From Geobacter sp. AOG2 (GTDB taxonomy: Bacteria; Desulfobacterota; Desulfuromonadia; Geobacterales; Pseudopelobacteraceae), in contig NZ_BLJA01000001.1 of NCBI RefSeq assembly GCF_019972295.1, positions 3,193,574 through 3,257,573 on the forward strand: 64,000 nucleotides of DNA, given 5' to 3'. Numbering within the stretch: position 1 is the first letter of the stretch; each line of letters starts with the position of its first letter. The position numbers and the translations under genes were made by a program. The notes below the pieces were generated by a model, which saw only the letters and a program-made list of their open reading frames with translations, did no database searches and was not told where the DNA came from. Shown here one piece after another: positions 13,296-53,797 of this stretch.

Positions 13296-13315
13296 GACGC
13301 CTCCTTTTGTGATGG

Positions 13316-14580: not shown

Positions 14581-15063
14581 TCAACAACATTTTTCAACCG
14601 GTGTCCCGGATGCCACAATCTCGGCAACCAGCAGTTCGGCCAGTCCGGGGAGCTTTCCGGACAGTAGTGGCGAAAGCTCGGCACCGGCCTCATAGGATGC
14701 GGGGATGATACCGAACAGGGTGATCTTTTCGGGACAGCGGTCACGGATTTCGGAGAGCGCCAGTACCTCTTGGATGCCGATCTGGTGTGGCGACATCTTG
14801 ATCGGCAGCTTGCCCAGCATGAAGTCGTCTTTCTCGTAGCGATAGATATCCCCCGGCTCTCCCTTGGCTTCTATAACGTCCACCAGGAACACCTGGTCAG
14901 CGTCTTCAAGCATGTGGGAGACCATGATACCGAGCGTGCCGCCGTCGTACAAGGTTACCTCGGGCGGAAATACATAGTGTTTCTGCAGGTACTGGATAAA
15001 ATGGACCCCGAAGCCTTCATCGGAGAGGAGCAGGTTGCCGGCGCCAAAAATAAGGGTTTTCAT
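14581..15063 (-). CDS. hybP: Hydrogenase maturation endopeptidase for HybL
   Basis: 160-residue HybD/HyaD-family protease. It starts MKTLIFGAGNLLLSDEGFGVHF, with the family G-x-G-N-x-L-x-x-D-E pattern, and later DQVFLVDVIEAKGEPGDIYR and a conserved His in MSPHQIGIQEVL. It is the last gene of the hyb operon and should cleave the 15-residue tail of HybL after DPCIACAVH. The ATG at 15063 follows AAAGGAT; the frame continues upstream to 15159 through repeat-like intergenic sequence. It differs clearly from the second protease gene in the mvh operon, so each hydrogenase has its own. Confidence 0.93.
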   Translation of the reverse strand: MKTLIFGAGNLLLSDEGFGVHFIQYLQKHYVFPPEVTLYDGGTLGIMVSHMLEDADQVFLVDVIEAKGEPGDIYRYEKDDFMLGKLPIKMSPHQIGIQEVLALSEIRDRCPEKITLFGIIPASYEAGAELSPLLSGKLPGLAELLVAEIVASGTPVEKCC

Positions 15064-15084
15064 GAAGTATCCTTTTGCCATCGC

Positions 15085-15195
15085 TAAAGACACAAAGAGC
15101 ACAAAGGCTGCCGACAATAGTGAACAGTGGCTCGGCTTATTCGCTCCACCTCTCTTCACTATTGTCAGCGCCCTTTGCGCCTTTGTTGTGAGAGT
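15085..15195. repeat. Imperfect inverted repeat between hybL and hybP
   Basis: GACAATAGTGAA and TTCACTATTGTC form a perfect 12-bp inverted repeat. It is flanked by more loosely matching ACAAAG/CTTTG-rich arms, and the whole element spans about 110 bases. This is the only sizeable gap inside the hyb operon (145 bases). It resembles the intergenic palindromes rich in CACAAAGG-type words found in many deltaproteobacterial genomes. It could stabilise or split the transcript between hybL and hybP. Confidence 0.6.
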
Positions 15196-15208
15196 TGCAG
15201 GGTGATTG

Positions 15209-16888: not shown

Positions 16889-16953
16889 GTATTTCCTCCG
16901 TTATCGGTTTTATTAACAATAATTCAACAGCGTATTGGTTTCTGCCTCGTTGT

Positions 16954-18258: not shown

Positions 18259-19199
18259 CAGTGGTCTCCCCCCTCGTCGGTTTTTGTATCATGCTCTTTC
18301 TCCGCTTCGCCGTGCCCCTTCATGTTTTTAACCGCGATGAAGCAGAGCGTACTGTAGAGCGCAACTGGGGCGATGAAACCCTTGTAGATGGTATGCTGGA
18401 TCTTTTCGGAGAATTCGGCAGGCGCATCCTCCTTTAGGGTCGGCAGGCCAAGCTTGTTGAACTGCATGCTGGCGAGATAGAGGTGGTTGGTGCCACCCAC
18501 TTCGTGCGCGCCATAAATGTGGTTGATGTACTTGCCCGGATTTTCCCGCAGCCGCTTTTCAGCTTCTTCCAGCAGATCTTTCCGTTTGCCGAACATGATC
18601 GCACCGGCCGGGCATACTTCGGCGCATGCGCTGATTCCTTTCTTCGGCAGGTTGGTGTTTTTGCACAGGTCACATTTAACGATCTGGGGGATCGCCTTCT
18701 CCCACTGGAATTTGGGGATGTTGAACGCGCAGGCCACCTGGCAGTAGCGGCAACCGATGCAGGTGTTCTTGTTGTAGTCCACGATGCCGGTTTCCGGATC
18801 ACGCGTCATGGCGGCAACCGGGCAGACCGAAACGCAGGAGGGTTTCTGACAGTGCATACAGGAGTATTTGACGTAGGACCACTCCTGCTCCGACTGTTTG
18901 AAGAGCTTGATCAGGGTACGAGTGCTGCCTGATAGATCCTCCGGGGCATCCCACAGGCCGTCGGTGTCAAACTTGGCGCGCTCGTAGGAAAGGCTGCCGT
19001 AGTCGCCGTTTACCCGCTTGCAGGCCGACATGCAGGCCTTGCAGCCGACGCACTTGGTGGCGTCGTACAGCATGCCGATGGTTTCATTGTTGATCTTATG
19101 CCCCTCGTTGGCCGAGGCCTTCTTACCAGCCAGCAGGGCTGCGCCGGTGGCACCCATGATTTTGAGGAACTGGCGTCTACTCGGTTTTGCCATGATCAT
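18258..19199 (-). CDS. hybA: Hydrogenase ferredoxin-like electron-transfer subunit with Tat signal
   Basis: 313 residues. The N-terminus has the twin-arginine motif SRRQFLK and a hydrophobic stretch, so it is exported folded. Four 4Fe-4S cysteine groups follow: CVGCKACMSACKR, CMHCQKPSCVSVCPV, CIGCRYCQVACAF and CDLC with CAEVCPAG. One C-terminal membrane segment (FIAPVALYSTLCFIAV) anchors it. It should link HybS to HybB. It starts inside the end of hybS; ATGs at 19199 and 19193 are both possible. Confidence 0.95.
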   Translation of the reverse strand: MIMAKPSRRQFLKIMGATGAALLAGKKASANEGHKINNETIGMLYDATKCVGCKACMSACKRVNGDYGSLSYERAKFDTDGLWDAPEDLSGSTRTLIKLFKQSEQEWSYVKYSCMHCQKPSCVSVCPVAAMTRDPETGIVDYNKNTCIGCRYCQVACAFNIPKFQWEKAIPQIVKCDLCKNTNLPKKGISACAEVCPAGAIMFGKRKDLLEEAEKRLRENPGKYINHIYGAHEVGGTNHLYLASMQFNKLGLPTLKEDAPAEFSEKIQHTIYKGFIAPVALYSTLCFIAVKNMKGHGEAEKEHDTKTDEGGDH

Positions 19200-20289
19200 C
19201 TCCCTTCTCCGGGCCGTCCGGCAGTTTCTTGGCCATCATGACGCCCGCACCGATGGCTGCGCCGGCAGCCAGGCCGATGACGCCGGTGGTCAGAGGATCA
19301 GGGCCTTTGCCCTTTTCCTTCAGGTCGATCGGTGCATAACTGTCGAACGGCGTTGGTTCGTGAATCTGAACCTTGTCGGCGATAGCGGTCTTGAACAGCA
19401 GGTCCGGCTCGGTGCAGCCAATGCAGGGATGACCTATGGAAACCGGCCAGGCGCCCACATCATTGAAGCGCAGCACCGAACAGTTGGCATAGGTGGCCGG
19501 TCCCTTGCAACCCAGCTTGTAGAGGCAGTAACCCTGGCTGTGCCCTTCGTCGCCGAAGGCGCGGGCGAAACGACCGGCATCGAAGTGAGGACGACGCTCG
19601 CAGTGTTCATGGATTCTGCGGCCGAAAGCAAATTTGGGACGGCCCATCTGATCCAGTTCGGGCAGTTTTTTGAACGTTACATAGTAGAGGACGGTTGAAA
19701 GGAAGTTGTAAGGGTTGGGTGGGCAGCCGGGAATGTTGATGATCGGCTTGTCCTTGACGATGTCGCGGACCCCTACGGCCCCGGTGGGGTTGGGGCCGAC
19801 GGACTGGATACCGCCGTAGCTGGCGCAGGTGCCCATCGAGATGATGGCGGCAGCGCCCTCGGCGGCATGCTTCAGCGAATCCAGGGATGTTTTACCGTGA
19901 ACCTTGCAGTAGATGCCGTTGTCCTTGGTGGGGATGGCGCCCTCTACGACCAGGATATAATTTCCTTTGTTGGCCAACATGGAATCAGTCAAGGATTTTT
20001 CGGCCTGGAAGCCGGAACCGACCATGAGGGTCTCATGATAGTCAAGGGAGATCATGTCAAGGATCAAGTTGGAAACGGTCGGATGCGTCGAACGCAAAAG
20101 CGATTCCGAACAACCGGTACACTCCTGGAAGTGGAGCCATATCACTGCTGGCCTGTTGTCGCTCTTCTGGGCCGCTTGGGCAACTTTGGTAACCATCCCG
20201 TAGGGAAGTCCCAACATGGCCGATACGGTCATGCAGGTCTTCATGAAGTCTCGACGGGTAACGCCGGGGAAAAGGCCCTTTTCTGTCAT
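19177..20289 (-). CDS. hybS: Periplasmic uptake [NiFe]-hydrogenase small subunit with Tat signal
   Basis: 370 residues. The Tat signal TRRDFMKTCMTVSAMLGLP is followed by cluster ligands in ECTGCSESLLRS, MGTCASYGGI, PGCPPNPYN, and the medial/distal group with HPCIGCTEPDL. A C-terminal membrane segment (about residues 330-350, GVIGLAAGAAIGAGVMM) anchors the dimer at the periplasmic face. I chose the ATG at 20289 because GGAGGA stands six bases upstream; the longer open frame has no family similarity. It is the first gene of the operon and lies about 60 bases downstream of a consensus sigma-54 promoter. Confidence 0.96.
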   Translation of the reverse strand: MTEKGLFPGVTRRDFMKTCMTVSAMLGLPYGMVTKVAQAAQKSDNRPAVIWLHFQECTGCSESLLRSTHPTVSNLILDMISLDYHETLMVGSGFQAEKSLTDSMLANKGNYILVVEGAIPTKDNGIYCKVHGKTSLDSLKHAAEGAAAIISMGTCASYGGIQSVGPNPTGAVGVRDIVKDKPIINIPGCPPNPYNFLSTVLYYVTFKKLPELDQMGRPKFAFGRRIHEHCERRPHFDAGRFARAFGDEGHSQGYCLYKLGCKGPATYANCSVLRFNDVGAWPVSIGHPCIGCTEPDLLFKTAIADKVQIHEPTPFDSYAPIDLKEKGKGPDPLTTGVIGLAAGAAIGAGVMMAKKLPDGPEKGDDHGKTE

Positions 20290-20348
20290 TGCATCCTCCG
20301 CTGTCATGTACTTGAGTATGTGGCTGGTTAAAAACCTTGTAGTATACG

Positions 20349-20363
20349 GCAACAGGCGTGCCA
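20349..20363 (-). promoter_or_regulatory. Sigma-54 (-24/-12) promoter of the hyb operon
   Basis: On the minus strand the sequence is TGGCACGCCTGTTGC, an exact fit to TGGCAC-N5-TTGC with the required GG-N10-GC spacing. Transcription would begin near 20337, giving a leader of about 48 bases before hybS. The divergently encoded protein at 20646 is a sigma-54 activator with a GAFTGA loop, which makes it the obvious candidate regulator. Confidence 0.9.
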
Positions 20364-20453
20364 ATCTGGTGTTTCTGGGGCGCTTGTTACAACTGCGCGT
20401 AATTATTGAAGGAGATGCGCTCAATACCGAGCGGGTAGACGCCAAAACAAAAC

Positions 20454-20462
20454 AACGGTTGC
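20454..20462. promoter_or_regulatory. Candidate upstream activator site for the hyb promoter
   Basis: CAACGGTTG is a palindrome set in a loosely symmetrical A-rich/T-rich context, about 115-125 bases upstream of the predicted start. That is a usual distance for a sigma-54 enhancer. A second imperfect dyad, GCGCTTGTTACAACTGCGC, lies at 20380-20398 but is closer than enhancers usually are. Neither is confirmed. Confidence 0.3.
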
Positions 20463-20513
20463 GTCTTTTTGCTACATGATGTATCTTTTTGTCCAGGTAG
20501 TCCCCTCCTGCTC

Positions 20514-20533
20514 CCCCTTTGTTCTCAAAGGGG
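20514..20533. other. CCCCTTTG/CAAAGGGG hairpin in the leader of the regulator gene
   Basis: A perfect 8-bp inverted repeat with loop TTCT, in the divergent gap 110 bases before the regulator start. There is no U run long enough for a strong terminator in either direction. The remaining bases of this 356-base gap show no ORF. Confidence 0.45.
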
Positions 20534-20645
20534 AAAAGTAAAGTCTCCCGTGCACAAAGAAGAGATTGCAGGGTTTGTTTTCCCGCTGGTTCATGGGGGA
20601 GACCAGAGGGGAGCCGGCGCCATTCCGGAACGAGGAGCACGTGTA

Positions 20646-22016
20646 ATGCCAAGTGTGTTTGTATGTGATGATGAAGCGGATATTCTTCGCTATCTCGATA
20701 AGCTTTTGAGTGCGAACGGCTACCGTGTTGAGACCTTCTTGCGCGGTAACGAACTTTTAAAGCGTGTAAAAGCTCCGGGTGCCGTGGAGTGCGACGTGAT
20801 CCTGCAGGATGTACGCATGCCCGACATGGACGGTCTTCAGGTTCTCAAGCATCTCCGCAGTGAGCGCCCGGAGGTGCCGGTGGTCATCATGACGGCGCAC
20901 GGTACGATTGACGATGCGGTTCAGGCTATCAAACTGGGAGCTTATGACTATATCACCAAGCCTTTTCCAAAAGAGAAGCTGCTGACGGTTCTTGACCGAC
21001 TGCTCGACCACCACCGGTTGGCCAATGAAAACCTCATGCTGCGCAAGGAACTGCAACGGGGGACCGGCCGTTCCGAAACCATGATCTTCAGAAGCGCCCG
21101 TTTCCGTGAGGTGTACGACCTGACCTTGCAGGTCGCCTCCAGCGATGCTAACATCCTGATTCTGGGAGAGTCGGGCACCGGTAAGGAACTTATCGCCAGC
21201 ACCATCCACGCCAACAGCCCGCGGGCCGGCAAACCATTTGTCTCCCTGAACTGCGCCGCTCTCTCGGATACCCTTCTGGAAAGCCAGCTTTTCGGACATG
21301 TGCGCGGCGCCTTCACCGGTGCGGTGATCAACCAGAAAGGGCTGGTGGAGGAGGCAGATGGCGGGACGCTTTTTCTGGATGAGATCGGCGATGTCAGTCC
21401 GACGGTTCAGGCCAAGTTACTGCGAGTGATTCAGGAAAAGGACTTCATTGCCGTCGGTTCTACCCGGCCCCGCAAGGTGGATGTGCGTTTCGTCGCCGCC
21501 ACCAACAAGGACCTGGCGAACGAGGTTCGGGATGGACGTTTTCGTGAGGATCTTTATTACCGTCTGAACGTTATCACTGTCAACCTGCCCTCCCTGCGTG
21601 AGCGGCGTGAGGATATAGAGCCGCTGGCGCGCCATTTCCTGAATATCTATACCGCAAAGATGAAGAAAGAGGTCCGCGATTTCGAGGATGAAGCGCTGAC
21701 AATGCTGCAGGACTACGACTGGCCGGGTAATGTGCGCGAGTTGGAGAACGTTATGGAGCGTGCCGTCATTTTGGCCCGTTCCAATACCATCACCGCTGCC
21801 CTGCTTCCTATCGGGAGGAGGCGTGAAACAGCGACAGCTCCCCATGGTGCGCCTCCTCTGGTGGCACTGGATGAGGTGGAGCGGCAACATATCAAGGCAG
21901 TATTGAAGCGGACCGGTTTCCACAAGAGCCGTACGGCCGAGATTCTCGGTATATCCCGCAAGACACTGGACCGTAAGATCGTCGAATTCGGCCTGAGTGC
22001 CGGCCGGGCCGAATGA
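20646..22016 (+). CDS. Sigma-54-dependent response regulator (NtrC family), probable hydrogenase activator
   Basis: 456 residues. The receiver domain (about 1-120) has the phospho-acceptor in DVILQDVRMPDMDG (about Asp52). The AAA+ domain (about 140-375) has Walker A GESGTGKELIA, the sigma-54 contact loop GAFTGA, and Walker B GGTLFLDEIGD. A Fis-type helix-turn-helix closes the protein (KSRTAEILGISRKTLDRKI). The start at 20646 is preceded by GAGGAG. It is divergent from hybS with its -24/-12 promoter and followed after 34 bases by a histidine kinase. Control of hyb is inferred from this arrangement, by analogy with HupR/HoxA. Confidence 0.94.
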   Translation: MPSVFVCDDEADILRYLDKLLSANGYRVETFLRGNELLKRVKAPGAVECDVILQDVRMPDMDGLQVLKHLRSERPEVPVVIMTAHGTIDDAVQAIKLGAYDYITKPFPKEKLLTVLDRLLDHHRLANENLMLRKELQRGTGRSETMIFRSARFREVYDLTLQVASSDANILILGESGTGKELIASTIHANSPRAGKPFVSLNCAALSDTLLESQLFGHVRGAFTGAVINQKGLVEEADGGTLFLDEIGDVSPTVQAKLLRVIQEKDFIAVGSTRPRKVDVRFVAATNKDLANEVRDGRFREDLYYRLNVITVNLPSLRERREDIEPLARHFLNIYTAKMKKEVRDFEDEALTMLQDYDWPGNVRELENVMERAVILARSNTITAALLPIGRRRETATAPHGAPPLVALDEVERQHIKAVLKRTGFHKSRTAEILGISRKTLDRKIVEFGLSAGRAE

Positions 22017-26880: not shown

Positions 26881-26895
26881 GCGATGTTCCCTTGC

Positions 26896-27015
26896 AGGTT
26901 GTTGAAAAACAGCCATTTCGCCGCATCCTCGAAAACCACTTCGTGCGATGTAGCGCTGCTACGCCTTCTCGTGGTTTTCTGCGGGTGCGGCGATCTGACT
27001 ATTTTTGGACAACCT
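26896..27015. repeat. Palindromic element, family A copy 1
   Basis: 120 bases bounded by AGGTTGTTGAAAAACAG and its imperfect inverse CTATTTTTGGACAACCT. Nested inside is a second perfect inverted repeat GAAAACCAC/GTGGTTTTC and a core GTAGCGCTGCTAC, so the whole element can fold as one long hairpin. It separates the two permease genes of the ABC operon. Related copies lie at 45451-45571 and 53654-53756. Confidence 0.9.
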
Positions 27016-37967: not shown

Positions 37968-40340
37968 ATGAACTCAGTAGTGAACAAACCCGAACTCCTG
38001 GCCCCGGCCGGGTCGTTGGAATCCTTCTTCGCCGCCATGGAAAAGGGGGCTGATGCGGTCTATGCCGGGCTGCGCGACTTCTCCGCCCGAGCCCGGGCCA
38101 AGAACTTCACCATGGGCCAGATGGAACGGATGCTGGCCTATGCCCACGCCCACGGCCGGAAGATCTACATCACCCTCAACACCCTGGTGAAGGAGAAGGA
38201 ATTGCCACAACTGGTGGAGACCCTGGCCGCCCTGGCGGGGATGCGGGTGGACGGAGTGATCCTCCAGGACCTGGCCGTGGCCCGGCTGATTCGCCGTCAC
38301 TTCCCCACCATACCGCTCCACGCCTCGACCCAGATGACCATTCACAACACGGCCGGCGTCAAGATGCTGGAAGATTTGGGATTTCAGCGGGCGGTACTGG
38401 CCCGCGAACTGGCCCTGGACGAGGTGGCGGCCATTGCCGCGGCCACGTCGGTGGAGATTGAGACCTTTGTCCACGGCGCCCTTTGTTTTTCCGTCTCGGG
38501 GCAGTGCTTCTTCTCCTCTTATCTGGGGGGGCACAGCGGCAACCGGGGGCGCTGCGCCCAACCCTGCCGCCGCCTGTATAACCATCGCGGCAAAGAGGGG
38601 CATTACTTTTCCACCAGTGACCTGTCGGCCATCGACATGCTGCCGGAACTGGCCAAGGCCGGGGTGAAATCCCTCAAGATAGAGGGGCGCATGAAATCGG
38701 CCGAGTACGTGGCCAGCGTGGTCGAGGCCTACCGACTGGTCCTGGATGCGCCGGAGCGGTCCCGCAAGGAAGCGCTGGGCACTGCCAAAGAGGTCCTGAA
38801 ATATTCCTTCGGCCGTACCCCGACCAAAGGCTTTCTTGCCTCCCAACAGCCGGACGACATCGCCAACCCCTGGCAGAAGGGGGGGACCGGTCGTTTCGTC
38901 GGCCAGATCAAGGGAGTTAAGGGCAACCGCTTGACCTTCGAGAGTCGTGACCCTTTGTTCGTGGGGGATCGGCTGCGAGCCCAGCCCAAGAGCGATATGG
39001 CCGGTCAGGCTTGGACCGTGCGTGAGCTATTCGTGGGTCGCAAGAAGGTGATGGAGGCTCGCGCGGGCAGCGTGGTGGAAGTGGAAACCCCCTTCCGTTT
39101 CAGTGTCGGGGACTCGGTCTATAAAGTCTCCTCCCGCGAGGCCTTCACCCTGAGCGAGAATGCCTGCCTGCGGCGGCTGGAGTCGGTGCAGCGGGATAAG
39201 GTGCCGTGTCGGCTGCGGGTCGCTCTGCATGACGGTGTCATGCATATAGACGCCGAGGCCGGTGGGTTGAAGCACCCATTCCAATTTCCCCTCGGCCCGT
39301 TGGAGCCGGCCCGTAGCGGAGACATGCAGTCAGTGCTCCATGGGCAGTTTGCCAGGACCGGCGAGACACCCTTCCTGCTGGAATCCTTGGAGGCTCCCGA
39401 TTTCCCGGTGGTGTTGATACCGTCGGCCATCTTTAAGGAGGTGCGGCGGCAGTTTTATCGACAGTTGGACGAGGTTCTCTCCACGGGCTTCCGTGAGCGG
39501 GTCACTGCATCTCGTACGGCGGCCTTGGGCGATGTGGCGGAGTTTCGCGCAGGCCCCGTTACTACCGGCCCCAAGGAGGTCCTGGCGGTGGTCATGGATC
39601 AACCCAAGGATTGGCGTTTCCCACTGCAAAGCGGTGCCGATACCACGATTCTGCCGCTCTCCAGGGCGGCCATCCACCAACTCCCCGGAACGATTCCCCG
39701 CATGCGCGGCTATGAGGAGCGCGTAATTTGGCAGCTCCCCTTCATAATCTTCGACCGGGATATGCAACTGTATCGCGACACCTTGCGCCAACTGCACCAG
39801 GCCGGATTCCGGAATTTCGAGGCTGCCAATCTCTCCCATTTCCTTCTTCTGAAAGGGTTGGCGGGCGTGCGCATCTCCACCTGGCACCGCTGCTTTTCCC
39901 TCAACAGCCAGGCCTTGGCCGCCTGGCGGGAGTTGGGAGCTGAGACATGCACCCTCTATATCGAGGACGACGCCGCCAACCTGACAGACCTTTTGGCCGC
40001 CCGGGTCAACGTGGAGCGCAGGGTTATTGCCTATGCGCCATTGTCGGTCATGACCACCAAGATCCGCATCAAGGATGTGCACAGCAACATTCCGCTTCAC
40101 TCGGACCGGGGAGAAGCGTATAGTGTCACCAGCCGGGACGGCCTCCAGACTATCTCTGCCGCCACTCCTTTTTCCCTGACCGCCCGCCACAGCGAACTGC
40201 GCCGCGCGGGGTGTTGTTCCTATGTGATCGATCTGCGCCAGGCGCCGAGGGAGAGCTGGAACGAAATTTTGGCGGCCTTCAAGGCGGGGCGCGAGATACC
40301 TGGTACGACGGAGTTCAATTACGCTACGGAATTAGTATGA
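37968..40340 (+). CDS. U32 family peptidase, long form
   Basis: 790 residues. The N-terminal half has the U32 start PELLAPAGSLESFFAAM and the family signature FVHGALCFSVSGQCFFSS, with further cysteines in RGRCAQPCRRLY (about residues 165-205), probably an iron-sulfur or metal site. The C-terminal half matches the long U32 type with a DUF3656-like region. Relatives include RlhA (23S rRNA hydroxylation) and collagenase-like proteins, so peptidase activity is not assured. It overlaps the SNase-like gene by four bases (ATGA). Confidence 0.92.
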   Translation: MNSVVNKPELLAPAGSLESFFAAMEKGADAVYAGLRDFSARARAKNFTMGQMERMLAYAHAHGRKIYITLNTLVKEKELPQLVETLAALAGMRVDGVILQDLAVARLIRRHFPTIPLHASTQMTIHNTAGVKMLEDLGFQRAVLARELALDEVAAIAAATSVEIETFVHGALCFSVSGQCFFSSYLGGHSGNRGRCAQPCRRLYNHRGKEGHYFSTSDLSAIDMLPELAKAGVKSLKIEGRMKSAEYVASVVEAYRLVLDAPERSRKEALGTAKEVLKYSFGRTPTKGFLASQQPDDIANPWQKGGTGRFVGQIKGVKGNRLTFESRDPLFVGDRLRAQPKSDMAGQAWTVRELFVGRKKVMEARAGSVVEVETPFRFSVGDSVYKVSSREAFTLSENACLRRLESVQRDKVPCRLRVALHDGVMHIDAEAGGLKHPFQFPLGPLEPARSGDMQSVLHGQFARTGETPFLLESLEAPDFPVVLIPSAIFKEVRRQFYRQLDEVLSTGFRERVTASRTAALGDVAEFRAGPVTTGPKEVLAVVMDQPKDWRFPLQSGADTTILPLSRAAIHQLPGTIPRMRGYEERVIWQLPFIIFDRDMQLYRDTLRQLHQAGFRNFEAANLSHFLLLKGLAGVRISTWHRCFSLNSQALAAWRELGAETCTLYIEDDAANLTDLLAARVNVERRVIAYAPLSVMTTKIRIKDVHSNIPLHSDRGEAYSVTSRDGLQTISAATPFSLTARHSELRRAGCCSYVIDLRQAPRESWNEILAAFKAGREIPGTTEFNYATELV

Positions 40341-40873
40341 TTTTGATGAAGACCTTTCTCACGGTATCAGCGCTGCTCCTACTGATCGTTGCCGATGCCC
40401 GTGCGGAGCGCATCATCGCAGGGATGGTGCGGGGGGTCTACGACGGCGACACGGTGTTGCTGGCCACCCGGGAGGATAGCCGGCTCAAGGTGCGTTTGTA
40501 CGGCATCGATGCCCCTGAGACCGCCAAACCTGACAGTCCCGGACAACCCTTCGGAGAGATCTCCCGGCGGACCCTGATGTACAAGATCATGGGTCGCCAA
40601 GTCTCCGCGGAGGTTATGGATGTGGACCAATACCACCGCACGGTGGCGGTTATCCTGTATACCGGCCGGGACATCAACCGCGAAATGGTGGCTGAGGGGA
40701 TGGCCTGGGCCTATCGACAATATCTGCAAGGACCTTACGCCTCTGAGTATATCGGCGTGGAGGAGATGGCCCGTGCCCGGCACAAGGGGCTCTGGCGGGA
40801 CGCCAACCCGCTGCCTCCCTGGGAGTTCCGCCATGCCCAGGAGATCGGTGGCAAGCGCCGCGGCCGTCGTTAG
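40337..40873 (+). CDS. Exported staphylococcal-nuclease-like (SNase) protein
   Basis: 178 residues. A signal peptide (about 1-24) is followed by a complete SNase fold: VYDGDTVLLATRED, the first catalytic Arg in VRLYGIDAPE, and the second Arg in DQYHRTVAVILYTGRDINRE. It probably cleaves nucleic acid in the periplasm or outside, with calcium as the family cofactor. ATG codons at 40337 and 40346 are both possible; the first overlaps the U32 stop. The Hyf-like cluster starts 63 bases later. No functional link is evident. Confidence 0.9.
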   Translation: MILMKTFLTVSALLLLIVADARAERIIAGMVRGVYDGDTVLLATREDSRLKVRLYGIDAPETAKPDSPGQPFGEISRRTLMYKIMGRQVSAEVMDVDQYHRTVAVILYTGRDINREMVAEGMAWAYRQYLQGPYASEYIGVEEMARARHKGLWRDANPLPPWEFRHAQEIGGKRRGRR

Positions 40874-40935: not shown

Positions 40936-41844
40936 GTGATTGATCTCCTGATCCATCTCGTTCTGGTCATCCTCATGCCCCCCCTGCTGCCGGGAGTGAT
41001 CAATCGTACCAAGGCCGCCTTTGCGGGCCGTACCGGTGCGCCGCTGCTCCAGCCATATTTTGATCTGTTTCGACTGCTGCGCAAGGGCACGGTCTTCAGC
41101 CGCACCACCACCTGGATCTTCCGGGCCGGCCCCGTCGTGAGTCTGGCTGCCACCCTGGTCGCCGCGCTGTTTATCCCTCTTGGCTACCACCCCCCCCCGC
41201 TCTCATTCAACGGCGACATGATCCTGTTTGTATACCTGTTGGCCTTGGGACGCTTCTTTACCGTTGCCGCAGCCCTGGACACCGGCTCCAGCTTCGAAGG
41301 GATGGGTGCCGCCCGCGAGGTGAGCTTTTCCTGCCTGGCCGAACCGGTGGTGCTGATCACCCTCCTTGTGCTGTCACGCCTGTCCGGGTCCCTCTCCCTG
41401 TCTGGAATCCTGACCCACAGCTCAGCAACTCTCTGGCTGACCTCCGGGGCTTCCCTGGTCATGTTGGTGGCCGGGCTGTTCATGGTGCTTCTGGCGGAAA
41501 ACTGCCGGATTCCCTTCGACGATCCAACGACCCACCTGGAACTGACCATGATCCACGAGGTGCTGGTGCTGGACCACAGCGGTCCCGCTTTCGGTATGAT
41601 TACCTATGGCGCGGCGCTCAAACTCTATGTCCTCTCCGCCCTCTTCCTGCATGTGGCCCTGCCCTTGCGCGATGCCAACCCTTACCTCGATTGGGTTGTT
41701 TTCGTGGTGTCCATGATTCTTCTGGCGGTTGCCATCGGCGTGGTGGAATCGTGCATGGCCCGCCTCCGCTTGACGCGCGTGCCTCAGATGCTCCTGGCGG
41801 CCTGTGTCATGTCGGCTTTTGCCATGGTCCTGGTGCTGAGGTGA
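40936..41844 (+). CDS. Complex I/Hyf-type membrane subunit H homologue (HyfC/EhrB-like)
   Basis: 302 residues with about eight membrane spans, related to NuoH/HycD/HyfC. Conserved loops include LLQPYFDLFRLLRKG after span one, AALDTGSSFEGMGAAREVSF, and the acidic stretch ENCRIPFDDPTTHLELTMIH before span six. In complex I this subunit forms the quinone/proton channel junction with the hydrophilic arm. I set the GTG at 40936 as start because GGGAGG lies upstream and the longer frame adds no hydrophobic sequence. First of four linked genes; no NuoL/HyfB homologue precedes it. Confidence 0.88.
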   Translation: MIDLLIHLVLVILMPPLLPGVINRTKAAFAGRTGAPLLQPYFDLFRLLRKGTVFSRTTTWIFRAGPVVSLAATLVAALFIPLGYHPPPLSFNGDMILFVYLLALGRFFTVAAALDTGSSFEGMGAAREVSFSCLAEPVVLITLLVLSRLSGSLSLSGILTHSSATLWLTSGASLVMLVAGLFMVLLAENCRIPFDDPTTHLELTMIHEVLVLDHSGPAFGMITYGAALKLYVLSALFLHVALPLRDANPYLDWVVFVVSMILLAVAIGVVESCMARLRLTRVPQMLLAACVMSAFAMVLVLR

Positions 41845-41848
41845 AGTC

Positions 41849-42493
41849 ATGAATTCCTTTGCCGACCAATTGCTGGTGCTGGTGCTGCTAATCAATATCC
41901 TCATCCTGGGAACCCACCGGGCCCGCGTCGCCATCCGCGCCATTGCCCTCCAGGGTATCGTCCTGGGAACCATGCCGCTGTTCATCCACCCGGTACAAGG
42001 ACATATCCTGCTGATTACCCTGTTTGTCGTGCTGGCAAAGGGGCTCTGTATCCCCTGGCTGCTTTTCGGTGCTCTCAGCAAGATCGAATTCAGCGAAGAC
42101 CTGCAGCCCTTTCTCGGTTATGCCGGGAATGTCATCGCCGGGGCCGTGGCAACCCTTCTGGCTTTCGTCTTCGCCACACGGCTCCCCCTGGCGCCCCATC
42201 ACCAGCAACTATTGACCGTGCCGGCAGCGCTGGCCACCATTCTGGCAGGGTTCATCGCTCTTGCCAGTCGCCGCAAGGCCCTCAACCAGGTAATCGGCTA
42301 TCTGCTGCTGGAGAACGGAATATTTATCTTCGGTCTGCTCCTGACCGAAGCCGTGCCGTTGATGGTAGAGGCGGGTGCGCTCCTGGACCTGATCGCCGGC
42401 ATCTTCGTCATGGGGATCATCATCAACCAGATCAGTCGCGAATTTTCATCCATCGACACCAGCCGCATGACCGCCCTGCGGGAGGAGGAGTAA
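41849..42493 (+). CDS. HyfE-like membrane subunit
   Basis: 214 residues with six or seven membrane spans, the same size as E. coli HyfE. It contains ASRRKALNQVIGYLLLENGI, a segment that resembles the NuoK-related glutamate-bearing region of HyfE. It starts four bases after the previous stop and shares a base with the next start. It is one of the proton-translocating membrane components in Hyf/Ech-related complexes. Confidence 0.85.
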   Translation: MNSFADQLLVLVLLINILILGTHRARVAIRAIALQGIVLGTMPLFIHPVQGHILLITLFVVLAKGLCIPWLLFGALSKIEFSEDLQPFLGYAGNVIAGAVATLLAFVFATRLPLAPHHQQLLTVPAALATILAGFIALASRRKALNQVIGYLLLENGIFIFGLLLTEAVPLMVEAGALLDLIAGIFVMGIIINQISREFSSIDTSRMTALREEE

Positions 42494-43932
42494 TGACGCT
42501 GTTTACCCTCCTGGTCCTTATCCCGGTGACGGGCGCCCTGATCGCCTGGCTGATTCCCTCCAACGAGAAACGTCCCTGGGTGATGCCAGCTGTGGCCTGT
42601 CTGCATCTGATACTTGTTGTGGTCATCATAGCCGTGCCGCCGCCCCAGTCCCGCAACGAATGGATCGATCTGGACGCCATAGGCAAGTTGTTCCTGCTCG
42701 AGGTGTCTGCACTGTTCGCGGCCTGCGCCTTCTATTCGGTCAGTTACCTGCACTATCGCCGGGAACGGAACAACCGGGTGCTCTGCATGGGGATGCAGGT
42801 CTGTCTCGCGGCCATGTCCCTGGCGGCGGGGGTCCATCATATGGGGCTGTTATGGCTAGCCATCGAGACCACCACCCTTTCCATGGCACCCTTGGTCTAC
42901 TTTAACCGCAATGCCCGTTCCATCGAAGCGACCTGGAAGTACATGCTGATCTGCTCCATCGGCATCGCTCTGGCGCTGCTGGGCATCTTCTTTCTGGCCT
43001 ATTCCACGGTTGTGGCCGGGCTCCCTCCGTCACTTCTATTGGAGCCGCTTCAGAGCTATGCGCCCCGTTTACCGATTGGGTGGCTCAATGCCGCCTTTGT
43101 CTTTCTGCTGGTGGGGTACGGCACCAAGATGGGGCTGGCGCCGCTGCACACCTGGAAACCGGATGCCTACGGTGAGGCGCCGGGCCTGGTGGGGGCCATG
43201 CTGGCCGGGGGGCTGGCAAATTGTGGTTTTATCGGATTGATCCGTATCTACCAGATATGCATGGCTTCGGGCAATGTGCATTTTTACCGGGCGGCGTTGG
43301 TTGGGGCTGGGCTTCTGTCGCTCTTCACGGCGGCGGCTTTTCTGGTGCACCAAACCGACTTCAAGCGCATGCTGGCCTATTCCAGCGTCGAGCACATGGG
43401 CTTGTTTGCCGTGGCGTTGGGGTTGGGGGGCAAGGCGCTCTACGGAGCCATGCTACACCTGATCGGCAACGGCTTGGCCAAGGGGGTACTTTTCCTTGCG
43501 GCCGGCAACATCCACCGGGCCTTTGCCTCCAAAAGCCGGGACAGCGCCCGTGGCGCCTTAAGGCGCGCGCCCTGGAGCGGGGCCCTGTTCCTGGCCGGTT
43601 TTTTCGCTATGACCGGCTCGCCTCCCTTCCTCATCTTCTCCAGTGAATACTCCTTTTTTGCCGCCGCGTTCACCCAAGGACACCCACTCGTGGGGGGGCT
43701 GCTGGCGCTGCTGCTGATGGTGGCCTTCCTCGGGATGGCAATGACCGTGCTGCCGGTGGTCTTCGGCGAGCCTCCCAAAAACCGGGAACGGACCAGATAC
43801 CATGATAAGGCCCTGCTGGTCGTCCCGCCGCTGGCGCTTTTGACTATCTTGGGGGTGGTGGGGATCTGGCTGCCACAGCCGCTGTACAAGCTCGTGAATG
43901 CCGCTGCGGCACTTCTGGAGGTGGCCCGGTGA
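42493..43932 (+). CDS. HyfF-like proton-translocating antiporter subunit (NuoM/NuoN/Mrp family)
   Basis: 479 residues, about 14 membrane spans. Family features are the broken-helix region with conserved Glu and Lys (SIEATWKYMLICSIG), KMGLAPLHTWKPDAYGEAPG and TDFKRMLAYSSVEHMG. These charged residues are the pump residues of NuoL/M/N. It overlaps the stop of the previous gene by one base and the next start by four. It is the only antiporter-like subunit in the cluster; related complexes have two or three. Confidence 0.88.
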   Translation: MTLFTLLVLIPVTGALIAWLIPSNEKRPWVMPAVACLHLILVVVIIAVPPPQSRNEWIDLDAIGKLFLLEVSALFAACAFYSVSYLHYRRERNNRVLCMGMQVCLAAMSLAAGVHHMGLLWLAIETTTLSMAPLVYFNRNARSIEATWKYMLICSIGIALALLGIFFLAYSTVVAGLPPSLLLEPLQSYAPRLPIGWLNAAFVFLLVGYGTKMGLAPLHTWKPDAYGEAPGLVGAMLAGGLANCGFIGLIRIYQICMASGNVHFYRAALVGAGLLSLFTAAAFLVHQTDFKRMLAYSSVEHMGLFAVALGLGGKALYGAMLHLIGNGLAKGVLFLAAGNIHRAFASKSRDSARGALRRAPWSGALFLAGFFAMTGSPPFLIFSSEYSFFAAAFTQGHPLVGGLLALLLMVAFLGMAMTVLPVVFGEPPKNRERTRYHDKALLVVPPLALLTILGVVGIWLPQPLYKLVNAAAALLEVAR

Positions 43933-45449
43933 GTAGCGATGGTATTCTCAAGACATTTGCCAACGGCCAAATCGTCCGTGTCAAGGATGTACCGGAGATA
44001 GCGCTGGAGGCATTTCTTCAGGAGATTGTGGACCTGACGGGGTTGGGATGGCGCATAGCCTCCTACTTCGGCGTGCCGGAACGGGAAGGGGTCGCCCTGT
44101 GGTGTATTCTTGCGGGTAGCCAGGAGCGTCTGGGCGTGTTTCGCTCGTGGGTGGAGGAACGCCTGCCGAGCATTACCTCCGCTTGTCCCGAAGCGCACCT
44201 GTTTGAACGGGAGATCGCCGAGCAGTGCGGCATCCCGGTGGACGACCACCCCTGGTTCAAACCGGTGCGTTACCAGCGGTCATTCGACCGGACCCGTGAC
44301 GCTTGGGGACGGGGAAAGGATGAGCCGATTCTCCCCGCCGTAGGAGATTTCTACCGCATCAGCGGGGAGGAGGCTCACGAGGTCGCCGTGGGACCGGTGC
44401 ATGCTGGCATTATCGAGCCGGGGCATTTTCGCTTCCAGTGCCACGGCGAGACGGTTTTCCATCTGGAGATCGCCCTGGGGTACCAGTGCCGGGGCATTGA
44501 ACAGGCGCTAATCGGCGGCCCCCAGGCCGCCACCATGGCGCAGATGGAAACAATCGCCGGAGATACCACCATCGGCCATGCCACGGCCTATGCCATGATC
44601 CGGGAAGGATTGACTGGTACAGAGCCGCCGCCCCAGGCCGAGACCGTCCGATCGGTTGCCTTGGAACTGGAACGGCTGGCCAACCATTGCGGCGACATGG
44701 GGGCACTGGCCGGAGATGTGGGCTTTCTGCCGACCATGTCTTTCTGTGGCAGGATCCGGGGGGATTTTCTCAACATGACCGCCTTGTTATGCGGCAGCCG
44801 TTTCGGTAGAGGGCTGGTGCGGCCCGGCGGTACCTACTTCGGTTGTGCGCCGAGTCAGACGGCGGAATTGGCAAAACGTCTGGAGGAGGCGCGCAAGGAC
44901 TACGATGGGGCGGTGAAGCTGATGTGGGATTCCCCCTCGGTCATGGAGCGCCTTGAAAAGACCGGTCGGGTCGGCAGCGACGACGCCCTGGCCCTCGGGC
45001 TGGTTGGCCCGGCAGCCAGGGCCTGCGGCATCGTGCGGGATGTGCGCCATGACCACCCCTACGGTCTCTACCGGTCGTTTCACCCGTCGGTGTGTGTGGA
45101 ACCGGGGGGGGATGTGCTGGCCCGCGCCTTGGTCCGCTGGAAGGAATCGGAAGTCTCCATGGAGTTCGCGCTTGATCGGCTTGGTTCGCTGCCCGGAGGG
45201 GCATGCATGTCGGCCAGCGGAGAGATGGAGAAGGAACACCTGGCGGTGGCGTTGGTCGAGGGGTGGCGCGGCGAGGTGTGCCACGTGGCTATCACCGATG
45301 GGGGTGGGAAATTTCTCCGCTACAAGGTCAAGGACGCCTCGTTCCATAACTGGTCCGGCTTGGCCCTGGCCTTGCGCAACGGTCGGATATCCGATTTTCC
45401 ACTCTGCAACAAGAGCTTCAATCTCTCCTACTGCGGGTTTGATCTCTAG
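43929..45449 (+). CDS. HyfG/EhrL-like large subunit lacking NiFe ligands
   Basis: 506 residues. The N-terminal third resembles NuoC (about 1-110, REIAEQCGIPVDDHPWFKPV); the rest resembles the hydrogenase/NuoD large subunit (FRFQCHGETVFHLEIALGYQ). Where a NiFe protein has R-x-C-G-x-C, this one reads METIAGDTTIGHATAYAM. At the C-terminus the D-P-C-x-x-C-x-x-R site is replaced by SFNLSYCGFDL and then the stop. It therefore cannot bind NiFe in the known way and needs no maturation protease. It matches the Ehr (energy-converting hydrogenase-related) idea. The partner small subunit (NuoB/HyfI) is not in the window. Confidence 0.87.
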   Translation: MSSDGILKTFANGQIVRVKDVPEIALEAFLQEIVDLTGLGWRIASYFGVPEREGVALWCILAGSQERLGVFRSWVEERLPSITSACPEAHLFEREIAEQCGIPVDDHPWFKPVRYQRSFDRTRDAWGRGKDEPILPAVGDFYRISGEEAHEVAVGPVHAGIIEPGHFRFQCHGETVFHLEIALGYQCRGIEQALIGGPQAATMAQMETIAGDTTIGHATAYAMIREGLTGTEPPPQAETVRSVALELERLANHCGDMGALAGDVGFLPTMSFCGRIRGDFLNMTALLCGSRFGRGLVRPGGTYFGCAPSQTAELAKRLEEARKDYDGAVKLMWDSPSVMERLEKTGRVGSDDALALGLVGPAARACGIVRDVRHDHPYGLYRSFHPSVCVEPGGDVLARALVRWKESEVSMEFALDRLGSLPGGACMSASGEMEKEHLAVALVEGWRGEVCHVAITDGGGKFLRYKVKDASFHNWSGLALALRNGRISDFPLCNKSFNLSYCGFDL

Positions 45450-45450
45450 C

Positions 45451-45571
45451 AGGTTGTTGAAAAACACCCATCTCGCCGCCATCCTCGAAAGCCGCCTTGT
45501 GCGGCGTAGCGCTGCTACGTCTCCGCGGGGCTTTCTGCGGGTGCGACGACCTGACTATTTTTGAACAACCT
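45451..45571. repeat. Palindromic element, family A copy 2
   Basis: 121 bases starting with AGGTTGTTGAAAAAC and ending CTATTTTTGAACAACCT, with core GCGTAGCGCTGCTACGTC. It begins one base after the TAG of the HyfG-like gene and fills the gap to the convergent transglutaminase gene. A second short A-G-G-T-T-T-T-T-C-T-A-C-A-A-C-C-T copy of the ends follows directly (45570-45588). Confidence 0.9.
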
Positions 45572-45589
45572 AGGTTTTTCTACAACCTC

Positions 45590-47035
45590 TTAGTACATGG
45601 TCTCCAGCACCTTGATGTGGATCCTGCCGATGATGGCGACGATCGGCGCCATGTCCTCCGGTAGATGCCCTTCCAGCAGCTTCAGGTGAGTCGGGTCAGC
45701 CGGCACTTGGTCGTAGGTCGGATCAACGGCCACCCATCGACCATTCAGCAGGCTCTCGGCCCAGCTATGATAGAGGAACCCTTTGCCGTCCAGATAAACC
45801 AGCCCCGATACGAAACGGGTCGGGATGCCGGCCGCCCGGGCCAGTGCCGTGTAGAGACGAGCATGGGTCTGGCAGTTGCCGGTGCGGGATTTGAGGCTGG
45901 CAACAGCCCCCCCCCCATCCTCTACTGTGTCGCGCATCCAGTCCGATGTCCATGATACCAGGGCCTTGACGATCTCCTGAGGTTCTTTCCTGCCGTCCGC
46001 AACGTCCTTGGCCTTGGCGACAATCTCCGGCGCATCTGACTCGATTTTCTCTGCCGGCTTCAGGTAGTTCTCACGGCTAACAGACTCTTTGGCTTGGGCC
46101 GTCTTTGCAACCGCCTGTCCCGTTTTGACTATGATCCTGCCTTCGCCGCCCCTCTCCACGGTCTGTCCCCCCTCCTGCAGGAGCGGCAGGCTATCGTTCC
46201 AACCGCTGATTTCCACGCTGAGGCCGGTCAGTTTCTTGGAATCAGCGATGGGCGGTTCGGCCCGCACCAGACTGAAATCATAGATCAGATCCTTCTTGGC
46301 CAGCGCCACGCCACCCACGAACGAACCGAGTTGCTTGGGGTCTTCGGCCCTGGTGATCACCAGGCCCTCGCGTACCGATTCCAAGAGCGTATTACCCTTG
46401 TCGTCCACCCAGATATCGTTGTTGACGAAGGGGTACAGGTTGTTGCGCAGCTTGAGGGCCGGTTGGGAATCGGGTGTTTTTCCCTCCCCCAGAACACTGA
46501 TTCTGACTTCCTTCACCTTGACCTCTTCCGGGTCAAAGGACAAGATGGTATAGGATCTGCCGGTGGAGACGTCATGCATCAGGGGATAGAGATTGAGAGC
46601 CGGTCCGGGGTAGACCTCGCCTTTGCATTTGAGCTGTTTCTCCGTAGTTTTGCCGTTGATCACGCTTTTTATGCGGATGATGTTGCCACTGACCCTGCCG
46701 GAGATGCGTGAGGCGGTACCGTTGATAGCCTGCTCCACCTCGAAGGAGCGAAGTGCGAGACTTTTTCCCACCAGATAGGTTTCCCGCGTCGCCGACTCCT
46801 TGGAAAATCCCATGACTTTCATGCGCGTGCTTCCGTCACCCTCCATCAGGTAGCCGTCGGGGGTTTCGGAGATTACCTGGCGATAGAAGCCGACCCGTTC
46901 GTTATCCACGTAGATCCCGAACCAACGTTCCGAAAGCGGCGGCTTGTCCAGTTTCTTGAACAGGGCGGCTGTGGCCGGGAATGCAGCGGACAGGGTGAGG
47001 ATTATGACAATAAGTGCACGGAGAATAATTCTCAT
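45590..47035 (-). CDS. Exported transglutaminase-like protein
   Basis: 481 residues. A signal peptide (about 1-23) is followed by a long beta-rich N-terminal region of unknown fold. The transglutaminase-like core lies in the last 130 residues: Cys in RTGNCQTHARLYTALARAAG, His in GFLYHSWAESLLNGRW and Asp in VAVDPTYDQVPAD form the catalytic triad of this papain-like superfamily. Bacterial members are often proteases or amidases of the envelope. It stands alone; the upstream neighbour is 238 bases away. It converges with the HyfG-like gene. Confidence 0.85.
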   Translation of the reverse strand: MRIILRALIVIILTLSAAFPATAALFKKLDKPPLSERWFGIYVDNERVGFYRQVISETPDGYLMEGDGSTRMKVMGFSKESATRETYLVGKSLALRSFEVEQAINGTASRISGRVSGNIIRIKSVINGKTTEKQLKCKGEVYPGPALNLYPLMHDVSTGRSYTILSFDPEEVKVKEVRISVLGEGKTPDSQPALKLRNNLYPFVNNDIWVDDKGNTLLESVREGLVITRAEDPKQLGSFVGGVALAKKDLIYDFSLVRAEPPIADSKKLTGLSVEISGWNDSLPLLQEGGQTVERGGEGRIIVKTGQAVAKTAQAKESVSRENYLKPAEKIESDAPEIVAKAKDVADGRKEPQEIVKALVSWTSDWMRDTVEDGGGAVASLKSRTGNCQTHARLYTALARAAGIPTRFVSGLVYLDGKGFLYHSWAESLLNGRWVAVDPTYDQVPADPTHLKLLEGHLPEDMAPIVAIIGRIHIKVLETMY

Positions 47036-52753: not shown

Positions 52754-53797
52754 TTACCGATGCTCCCATATCATTTTTTGCGCCTCGGCCAGTGGATCAC
52801 CCGCCCCGTCCACCCAGTGGATGACCACCCCATTTTTCTCCATCCTGCGAAACCAAGTTTCCTGGCGCTTGGCAAAGTCGTGAATGGCGCTGTTCAGCTT
52901 CTGAAAAAGGTCGTTCCGCGTCAGTTCCCCCCGCAAAAAAGCGCCCACGAAACGGTACTCCAGACCGTAGTAATCCAGACGCTCCCAGGCGATTCCCCCA
53001 TCGTGGAGTCGTTGGACCTCCTCGACCATGCCGCCGGCCAGCCTTTGTCTGAGACGCTCCGTTATCCTGCGCCGCAATTCGGACCGCTCCCAGCGGATGC
53101 CGATCACCAGGGGCCGGATAGAGGGGAGCGGCTCCGGTTCCGTGTGCCTCACCTGTTCGTGGCGGGCGATCTCGATGGCGCGGATGGTGCGTTGCCGGTC
53201 CCCCAGATCGGTGCTGTTGTGCTGTCCCGGCCGCAGGCCCCGCAGCAGGTCCGCCAGTTCGGTGTCGCTCCTGGCGGCCAACTCCGCCCGCAGGGCTTCG
53301 TCCTCGGGCACCTCCACCAACCGGTAACCACGCAGGGCCGCGTCCAGGTACATGCCGGTGCCGCCGCACAAAAGCGGCAGGCGGCCGCGGGCGGTGATCC
53401 CCTCGAACGCCTCGATGTACAGGCGCTGGAAGGCGAACACGCTGAACTCCTGGCCGGCGTCCAGGATATCGATCAGGTGACAGGGGATTGCGCCGTACTC
53501 GTGCAGGTCCTTGCCGGAGCCGATATCCATGCCGCGGAATACCTGGCGCGAGTCGGCCGAGATGATCTCGCCGTTCAACTCCCCGGCCAGGGCCACGGCC
53601 AGCCGGGTCTTGCCCGAGGCGGTGGGGCCTAAGATGGTGAGGAGGTTGAAGGCGGGTTGTTGAAAAACAGCCGTCTCGCCGCCGTCCTCAAAAGTCTTTT
53701 CGTGCGTCCTCAGGGCCTTTTCCGGATACGACGATCTGGCCATTTTTGAACAACCTGGGCTTTTCGATAGGTTGCTGGGGAAAGGGGCGTCAGTCAT
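52754..53797 (-). CDS. miaA: tRNA dimethylallyltransferase with a repeat-derived N-terminal extension
   Basis: 347 residues in the open frame. Adds a dimethylallyl group to A37 of tRNAs reading UNN codons. The core has [17 protein letters not shown] (here about residues 55-70), [18 protein letters not shown] and the later [13 protein letters not shown]. In other MiaA proteins the P-loop lies within about 15 residues of the start. Here about 48 residues precede it, and residues 15-48 are encoded by a family A palindromic element. No in-frame ATG, GTG or TTG stands between the repeat and the P-loop. The ATG at 53797 overlaps the uvrC stop and has GGAGG upstream, so translation probably runs through the element. 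Confidence 0.93.
53654..53756. repeat. Palindromic element, family A copy 3, inside the 5' end of miaA
   Basis: 103 bases, GGGTTGTTGAAAAACAG to CCATTTTTGAACAACCT; the end inverted repeats are intact and the middle is shorter than in the other two copies (the GTAGC core is lost). It is wholly inside the miaA reading frame with no stop in that frame. Confidence 0.88.

What the first reader, a model, noticed from the sequence alone, without database searches (positions are those of the whole stretch)
40936..45449. Minimal Ehr/Hyf-like membrane complex without NiFe ligands, small subunit or NuoL homologue
Four genes only: HyfC-, HyfE-, HyfF- and HyfG-like. The large subunit has METIAGDTTIG in place of R-x-C-G-x-C and SFNLSYCGFDL in place of D-P-C-x-x-C, so it cannot hold NiFe. 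No NuoB/HyfI, NuoI/HyfH or HyfB homologue is near; an SNase gene and a repeat flank it. If complete as it stands, it is a proton-moving module with no visible electron path. If not, its parts are split in the genome.
Basis: partly seen in the sequence, partly recalled or inferred. Interest (0 to 1): 0.66.

Follow-up and report, generated by a model that had tools for sequence, protein, structure and literature searches.

The report
Scattered genes of one membrane pump
Four genes that look like an incomplete proton pump with no electron path appear to be the core of a complete six-part complex; the two missing parts are encoded at two distant places on the same chromosome, and related bacteria tend to keep or lose the pieces together.

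Summary
The four genes are real and intact: ehrB, ehrC, ehrD and ehrL of the known Ehr ("Ech-hydrogenase-related") family. The 3.92-Mb single-contig genome encodes EhrA (HyfB-like, 661 aa) beside rho, 0.43 Mb away, and EhrS (a HycF-HycG fusion with cluster cysteines) overlapping an amylase-like gene at 0.49 Mb.

The three-site layout is old. Twelve of 141 genomes of the order carry own-type pieces, always apart where seen. ehrA lies beside rho in 11 of 11 and ehrS beside the amylase-like gene in 11 of 11; ehrBCDL has two homes. Three genomes in two genera have the sites without any piece; two keep decayed ehrS ends. The flank tree suggests three separate joint losses. All six genes show purifying selection (dN/dS 0.07-0.30). 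The "degenerate" EhrL site is a conserved family motif.

Likely mechanism (inferred): a donor feeds EhrS clusters, an unknown acceptor is reduced at the EhrS-EhrL interface, EhrB/D/A move ions. A new gene layout of a known kind of complex.

The parts
40936..41844 (+). ehrB (HyfC/NuoH-like), 302 aa
   Evidence: PF00146 1.6e-35; 302 aa in 18 of 18 genomes compared; most of the motif AENCRIPFDDPTTHLELTMIHEV invariant in those 18
41849..42493 (+). ehrC (HyfE-like), 214 aa
   Evidence: NF008556 hydrogenase 4 membrane subunit 1.3e-22, below its curated cut-off
42493..43932 (+). ehrD (HyfF-like antiporter-type subunit), 479 aa
   Evidence: NF005044 hydrogenase 4 subunit F 1.8e-88, below its curated cut-off; PF00361 1.1e-40; Glu, Lys and His of the antiporter-type motifs invariant in 18 of 18 (their role is recalled)
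43929..45449 (+). ehrL (HyfG/HycE-like large subunit, NuoC+NuoD type) without NiFe ligands, 506 aa
   Evidence: PF00346 2.9e-35; best solved relative E. coli FHL subunit 5, 7z0s_E, 4.7e-42; conserved AGD(T) and NKSFNLSYCGFDL motifs
40337..40873 (+). SNase-family gene just upstream; host neighbour, not taken as a subunit
   Evidence: PF00565 3.8e-26; still present where ehrBCDL is absent: G117, G118, G121, G116
37968..40340 (+). U32 peptidase gene, host neighbour
   Evidence: PF01136 4.8e-77; U32-SNase-ehrBCDL order in G114, G115, G073, G074, G139 as in this window
45450..45575 (+). dispersed 126-bp repeat after ehrL, at least 40 copies in the genome
   Evidence: 40 matches scored and listed of 167 first-look candidates; same place in G114 at 95% identity, interrupted in G115
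45590..47035 (-). transglutaminase-like gene, right-hand host neighbour
   Evidence: PF01841 4.3e-20; follows SNase directly where ehrBCDL is missing in G117, G118 and G116

Best explanation
The window cluster is the ehrBCDL core of a six-subunit Ehr complex. Its NuoL/HyfB-type subunit EhrA and its iron-sulfur subunit EhrS are encoded at two other chromosomal sites: EhrA at genome 3,668,911-3,670,896 (-) between glyQ and rho, EhrS at about 489,750-490,505 (+) overlapping the end of an amylase-like gene. Shown: all six genes exist, are open, conserved and under purifying selection, and the three pieces tend to be present or absent together in relatives. Inferred: the six proteins assemble into one complex I-like machine. 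Electrons enter EhrS through its N-terminal ferredoxin-like domain and reach its NuoB-type cluster. An unknown acceptor is then reduced at the EhrS-EhrL interface, where NiFe sits in hydrogenases, and the energy is passed through EhrB to the antiporter-like EhrD and EhrA, which move ions. My guess for donor and acceptor is reduced ferredoxin and menaquinone or another small oxidant (about even odds between the last two).
For: Orphan EhrA: hydrogenase 4 subunit B model 1.8e-166, below its curated cut-off. Orphan EhrS: residues 11-103 match FHL subunit 6 (2.2e-14) and 115-251 FHL subunit 7 (1.4e-31). PF00146 occurs three times in the genome, this one and two at the complex I-type loci. Own-type pieces: EhrL in 10 of 141 genomes (69% identity or more; all other rows 62% or less), EhrS in 11 of 141 (81% or more; other listed rows 73% or less), EhrA in 11 of 141 (62% or more; other listed rows 53% or less), union 12 genomes in five genera. 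Sites are syntenic. No piece at the same three sites in G117, G118 and G121; decayed ehrS ends in G117 and G118. On the flank-protein tree G117 lies with the carriers G114 and G115, apart from G118+G116 and from G121. Own-type sequences form one clade in 6 of 6 gene trees. dN/dS 0.067-0.299 over 35 comparisons. Cluster cysteines and antiporter-type residues kept. In 13 of 13 more distant loci (EhrL 51-54% identity) ehrS follows ehrL.
Against: No protein, expression or assembly data for this organism. Four of the 12 genomes lack one own-type piece: G120 and G072 lack EhrL, G070 EhrS, G073 EhrA (its only EhrA-like gene there is the 37% one). All four are drafts (52-92% complete), and G120 also lacks U32, so gaps are likely but not proven. 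G116 could be checked at two sites only (rho not found). No remnant of ehrA or ehrBCDL was seen in the genomes without them, and none of any piece in G121, so loss in G121 is inferred from the tree. In NCBIfam the EhrS second half matches NuoB models best, not a hydrogenase model. Donor and acceptor are guesses. The first EhrS ferredoxin motif is poorly conserved in relatives. The EhrL model was too poor to use.
Confidence: 0.87

Rival explanations
1. One reading: EhrBCDL works alone as a four-subunit proton-moving module with no electron path.
For: The four genes stand in one operon-like run, are found as a block in two genomic homes (U32-SNase site and dapF site), and no partner gene is linked.
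Against: EhrA and EhrS of the matching type are in the same genome and are missing together with BCDL at the inspected sites of G117, G118 and G121. EhrL keeps its family motifs.
Confidence: 0.04
2. A decaying operon: the complex was broken by rearrangement and the pieces are on their way out.
For: The pieces are absent from some relatives, with visible ehrS decay in G117 and G118; repeats lie after ehrL and after the ehrS-MoxR pair. PMC13194489 (two passages seen) calls Ehr nonfunctional in G. sulfurreducens KN400 and its mutations relaxed selection.
Against: No internal stop in any of the Ehr ORFs extracted; dN/dS 0.07-0.30; the layout is shared by several genera; the repeat is at the same place in G114, so it does not mark a recent break.
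Confidence: 0.05
3. The orphan EhrA and EhrS serve other complexes (for example complex I or a hydrogenase), and their joint presence with ehrBCDL is shared ancestry only.
For: They are hundreds of kilobases away and each keeps its own neighbours; the genome has other NuoB- and NuoL-type genes; the NuoB half of EhrS matches NuoB models best in NCBIfam.
Against: Joint absence at unlinked sites; best NCBIfam match of EhrA is hydrogenase 4 subunit B and of the EhrS ferredoxin half an FHL iron-sulfur subunit; the best solved match of the NuoB half is FHL subunit 7; ehrA lies directly beside ehrBCDL at the rho site in G001 and G003.
Confidence: 0.04

Closest known systems
Ehr (Ech-hydrogenase-related complex) of Geobacter sulfurreducens, GSU0739-0745
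   Same: Same subunit kinds: NuoL-like EhrA-1, HyfE-like EhrC, large EhrL, small EhrS (names from PMC7894505 and PMC8691401, passages seen); ehrA-2 and ehrB are named in PMC13194489, which also says the complex lacks the NiFe centre (passages). The name EhrD is recalled.
   Different: There the genes carry consecutive locus numbers; here they are at three unlinked sites, with one EhrA match at E 1e-70. The G. sulfurreducens sequences themselves were not fetched by name.
Formate hydrogenlyase 1 of E. coli (and hydrogenase-4)
   Same: Closest solved relatives of EhrL and EhrS: 7z0s chains E, G and F; membrane subunits match hydrogenase-4 models.
   Different: No NiFe cysteines; HycF- and HycG-like parts fused in EhrS; genes split. 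Formate dehydrogenase was not looked for.
Respiratory complex I core (NuoB, C, D, H, K, L/M)
   Same: Shared families PF00346, PF00146, PF00361, PF01058.
   Different: Positions aligned with Nqo4 His38 and Tyr87 are Ile162 and Gly211 in EhrL (alignment; the role of those residues is recalled).
Mbh and Mbs of Pyrococcus furiosus (6cfw, 6u8y; organism recalled)
   Same: EhrL and EhrS match chains of both entries.
   Different: No residue-by-residue comparison of active sites was made.

Membership tests
Ehr complex | HycE/HyfG-type large subunit without the NiFe-binding cysteine motifs | tested here: met
Ehr complex | Membrane arm with NuoH-, HyfE-, HyfF- and HyfB-type subunits | tested here: met
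   Three in the window; HyfB type (EhrA) elsewhere in the genome
Ehr complex | NuoB/HycG-type small subunit with cluster cysteines | tested here: met
   Orphan EhrS; cysteines of GGC-x-x-C, GAC and PGCPP invariant in 19 of 19
Ehr complex | All subunit genes in one cluster (usual, not defining) | tested here: not met
   Three unlinked sites; of 120 strong EhrL copies 97 have an EhrS start within 8 kb and 23 do not
Ehr complex | The six proteins assemble | not testable with these tools
   Needs purification
Group 4 [NiFe] hydrogenase | R-x-C-G-x-C and D-P-C-x-x-C ligand motifs (recalled) | tested here: not met
   TIAGDT and NLSYCG in their place
Complex I | Quinone-site His and Tyr of the 49-kDa subunit (recalled: Nqo4 His38, Tyr87) | tested here: not met
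   Ile162 and Gly211 in the phmmer alignment with 2fug_4; a small gap shift could change the His match
Mbs/Mbx | Partial set of the four cysteines in the large subunit (recalled) | not tested
   No residue-level comparison with 6u8y_L was made

The most novel reading that the evidence does not exclude
Ehr is a third kind of complex I-like ion pump: neither hydrogenase nor quinone reductase. The conserved EhrL motifs (AGDT, and the C-terminal NLSYCGxDL) form a new substrate pocket next to the terminal EhrS cluster for a small soluble oxidant. In the Oryzomonas group the genes were scattered in steps (ehrS, then ehrBCDL, with ehrA left at the ancestral rho site) while selection kept the machine whole.
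Probability: 0.3. Interest if true: 0.75.

Novelty: new variant of a known kind. Interest (0 to 1): 0.52.

Why it matters
EhrL relatives are in most genomes examined of this order, yet the papers seen give no known reaction; one treats the complex as nonfunctional (PMC13194489, passages). Genes scattered to three sites, kept under purifying selection and missing together in three relatives, are good genetic evidence that Ehr is a working unit. The layout also gives clean targets: ehrA and ehrS are separate from ehrBCDL, so each part can be deleted without touching the others. For annotation it warns that a complex may look incomplete at one locus and yet be whole.

Tried and rejected
Structure: AlphaFold2 of EhrL on 16 sequences gave mean pLDDT 57.2, with the site regions (132-213, 470-506) below 50; I searched no fold library with it. 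Promoters: a crude sigma-54-like pattern gave two loose matches before ehrB of G000, one before ehrB of G114 and none before three ehrA and one ehrS, so no sign of shared control (one pattern, six stretches). Repeat as breakpoint: rejected because the same repeat stands after ehrL in G114. Literature: the listing counted three uses of 'ehr' in PMC2700814, but the find in its main text gave none for 'Ehr' or even 'hydrogenase', so that text could not be used. Apparent splits at contig ends (for example G119, where ehrL ends about 200 bases from the contig end) were not counted as dispersal. The support values that the script printed for EhrA, EhrD and EhrS (0.853, 0.887, 0.880) were shifted by re-rooting; the tree strings in the same output give 1.000 (A, B, C, D, L) and 0.999 (S) for the branch that separates the own type. 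Names rho, glyQ, dapF, mobA and mobB were first given by recall and then checked with Pfam; leuB, asd, purA, hisZ, prfA and other flank names are recall only.
Full report
What is there. Window 40936-45449 (+) holds four packed intact genes: ehrB, ehrC, ehrD, ehrL. EhrL aligns with E. coli formate hydrogenlyase subunit 5 over residues 78-501 (7z0s_E, E 4.7e-42).

The missing subunits. The genome is one contig of 3,921,258 bases with the window at 3,193,574-3,257,573. PF00361 has eight matches: three at each of two complex I-type loci, ehrD, and one orphan. The orphan is a 661-aa HyfB-type protein at L023:9911-11896 (-), genome 3,668,911-3,670,896 (hydrogenase 4 subunit B model 1.8e-166, under its curated cut-off). 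PF01058 has eight matches; one is an orphan at L028:5750-6505 (+), genome 489,750-490,505. Its first part matches FHL subunit 6 and its second FHL subunit 7, so it is a HycF-HycG fusion; in NCBIfam the second part matches NuoB models best. PF00146 occurs three times. So the genome encodes one whole set of Ehr subunits, at three places.

How general is it. In 141 genomes of the order, EhrL at E 1e-40 or better is in 120, EhrS at 1e-25 or better in 130, EhrA at 1e-70 or better in 122; these thresholds also admit other complexes. Of 120 strong EhrL copies, in 117 genomes, 97 have an EhrS start within 8 kb and 23 do not (hand-typed positions). The 23 are: 10 of the own type; 4 of one genus of another family (G001-G004); and 9 others (G061, G091, G079, G103, G119, G045, G005, G016, G127), several of them at contig ends. 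G103 looks like a further true ehrS split: no EhrS match in the nearly 6 kb downstream of its ehrL, and an EhrS on another contig. In the 13 more distant loci L142-L154 (EhrL 51-54% identity; seven titled Desulfobulbaceae, Desulfocapsaceae or Desulfoarculaceae, the order of the others not checked) ehrS follows ehrL in 13 of 13, and an EhrA match lies in the same locus in 12 of 13, the exception being a 5-kb contig. Linked genes are therefore the likely ancestral state.

The own type. Identities fall in two groups with a gap: EhrL 69% or more against 62% or less (full list); EhrS 81% or more against 73% or less, and EhrA 62% or more against 53% or less (listed rows; weaker rows of both were not listed). 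Own-type EhrL is in G000, G114, G115, G073, G074, G066, G067, G069, G139, G070; EhrS in G000, G114, G115, G073, G072, G074, G069, G139, G067, G120, G066; EhrA in G000, G114, G115, G074, G072, G070, G067, G066, G120, G069, G139. That is 12 genomes, eight of which have all three. In each the pieces seen are on different contigs or hundreds of kilobases apart. The four with one piece unseen are drafts of 52% (G070), 66% (G073), 74% (G072) and 92% (G120) completeness; G120 also lacks U32, and the EhrA-like gene seen in G073 is a 37% one, not own-type.

Synteny. ehrA lies next to rho in 11 of 11 own-type loci (10, this genome; rho and glyQ by Pfam). ehrS follows the amylase-like gene (PF00128) in 11 of 11 (9, this genome, G072). 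ehrBCDL follows U32-SNase in G114, G115, G073, G074 and G139 as here, and lies next to dapF in G066, G067 and G069; G070 was not viewed on that side. In G001 and G003 (another family) ehrA-B-C-D-L stands next to rho, and in G052 two ehrA copies, BCDL and ehrS do. So the rho side is probably the old home and ehrA the piece left there. In G001 and G003 ehrS is elsewhere, in a run with mobA- and mobB-like genes. The order of moves is inferred.

Joint absence. G117 (same genus, one contig, 99% complete), G118 (same genus, 88%) and G121 (same family, one contig, 99%) have glyQ-rho without ehrA, the amylase-like gene without an intact ehrS, and U32-SNase without ehrBCDL. These genomes were chosen for inspection because searches showed no own-type piece in them. 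G116 lacks ehrS and ehrBCDL at those sites; its rho was not found. In G117 and G118 the last about 85-110 bases of ehrS survive as decayed sequence. The matching first bases largely overlap the amylase-like gene and prove little by themselves. No remnant of ehrA or ehrBCDL, and none of any piece in G121, was found. In a tree of nine flanking proteins G117 groups with G114 and G115 (support 1.000) and G118 with G116 (1.000), while G121 pairs with G120 (0.998) (FastTree, patchy data for G070 and G072). Three separate joint losses are the simplest reading. G118 carries another, linked Ehr of the 60% type; G117 and G121 show no EhrL or EhrA at the thresholds used.

Selection and trees. dN/dS by the Nei-Gojobori method, my own script, is 0.067-0.299 in 35 gene-pair comparisons. 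For all six proteins the own type is one clade (FastTree, 18-19 sequences). Key residues of the antiporter-type motifs in EhrA and EhrD, much of the EhrB loop, and the NuoB-type cluster cysteines of EhrS are invariant in the 18 or 19 sequences compared. The first ferredoxin motif of EhrS is not, and the linked Ehr copy of G066 has largely lost it.

Repeat. The 126-bp element after ehrL has at least 40 copies in the genome (40 scored of 167 candidates). A copy at 91% identity lies after the MoxR-like gene downstream of ehrS. It is at the same place after ehrL in G114, so it is not evidence of a recent break. Whether such elements drove the old moves is open.

Mechanism. Shown: subunits, motifs, joint inheritance. 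Inferred: assembly, electron path EhrS to EhrL, coupling to ions. Positions aligned with the NiFe cysteines and with the Nqo4 quinone residues are different and, in Ehr, conserved, so the site probably has its own ligand. Prior reports seen: Ehr was more abundant in formate-grown G. sulfurreducens than in hydrogen-containing conditions (PMC7894505, passages); formate dehydrogenase suggested as partner in lineages sibling to the Cyanobacteria (PMC6349859, passages); function unknown in comammox Nitrospira (PMC10284858, passages); called nonfunctional in KN400 (PMC13194489, passages). I saw no report of Ehr genes at separate sites in the listings or in the passages read; these searches cover only the held open-licence library. 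The papers that first described Ehr (Coppi 2005; Marreiros 2013, both recalled, the first also cited) did not appear in the listings and were not read.

Noticed in passing
L025:8975-11416 and 11536-11949 (genome about 3.542 Mb) against genome 3,266,328-3,273,988: The second complex I also looks split: nuoA and a fused nuoBCD (Pfam) on the - strand about 270 kb from NuoH- and NuoL/M/N-type genes; copies of the 126-bp repeat flank nuoBCD.
   Followed up: partly
window 7924-20652: Run of genes on the - strand with two [NiFe] hydrogenases (large subunits 10801-12294 and 15209-16888, PF00374), an Hdr-like protein and maturation-protease-like genes, next to a sigma-54-type regulator and a sensor kinase (the last four named by recall).
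   Followed up: partly
L121:7506-9417 (G003) and L136 (G001): In another family ehrS stands in a run with mobA- and mobB-like molybdenum-cofactor genes, a possible hint at a molybdenum enzyme as partner.
   Followed up: partly
window 45450-45575, 26895-27015, 53655-53759; L028:7381-7506: 126-bp repeat family with a partial match to its own reverse complement, at least 40 copies in the genome; ORFs starting inside some copies begin MAVFQQP.
   Followed up: partly
19 genomes, for example G116:C80 and G075:C107: A more distant EhrL-like type (35-38% identity) occurs in 19 genomes, in several with a NuoB-type or HyfB-type match close by.
   Followed up: no
L129:11959-15478 (G073): Right after own-type ehrL, G073 has a further set of weak EhrA-, EhrB- and EhrC-like matches (37, 32 and 27%), perhaps another antiporter-type complex.
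   Followed up: no
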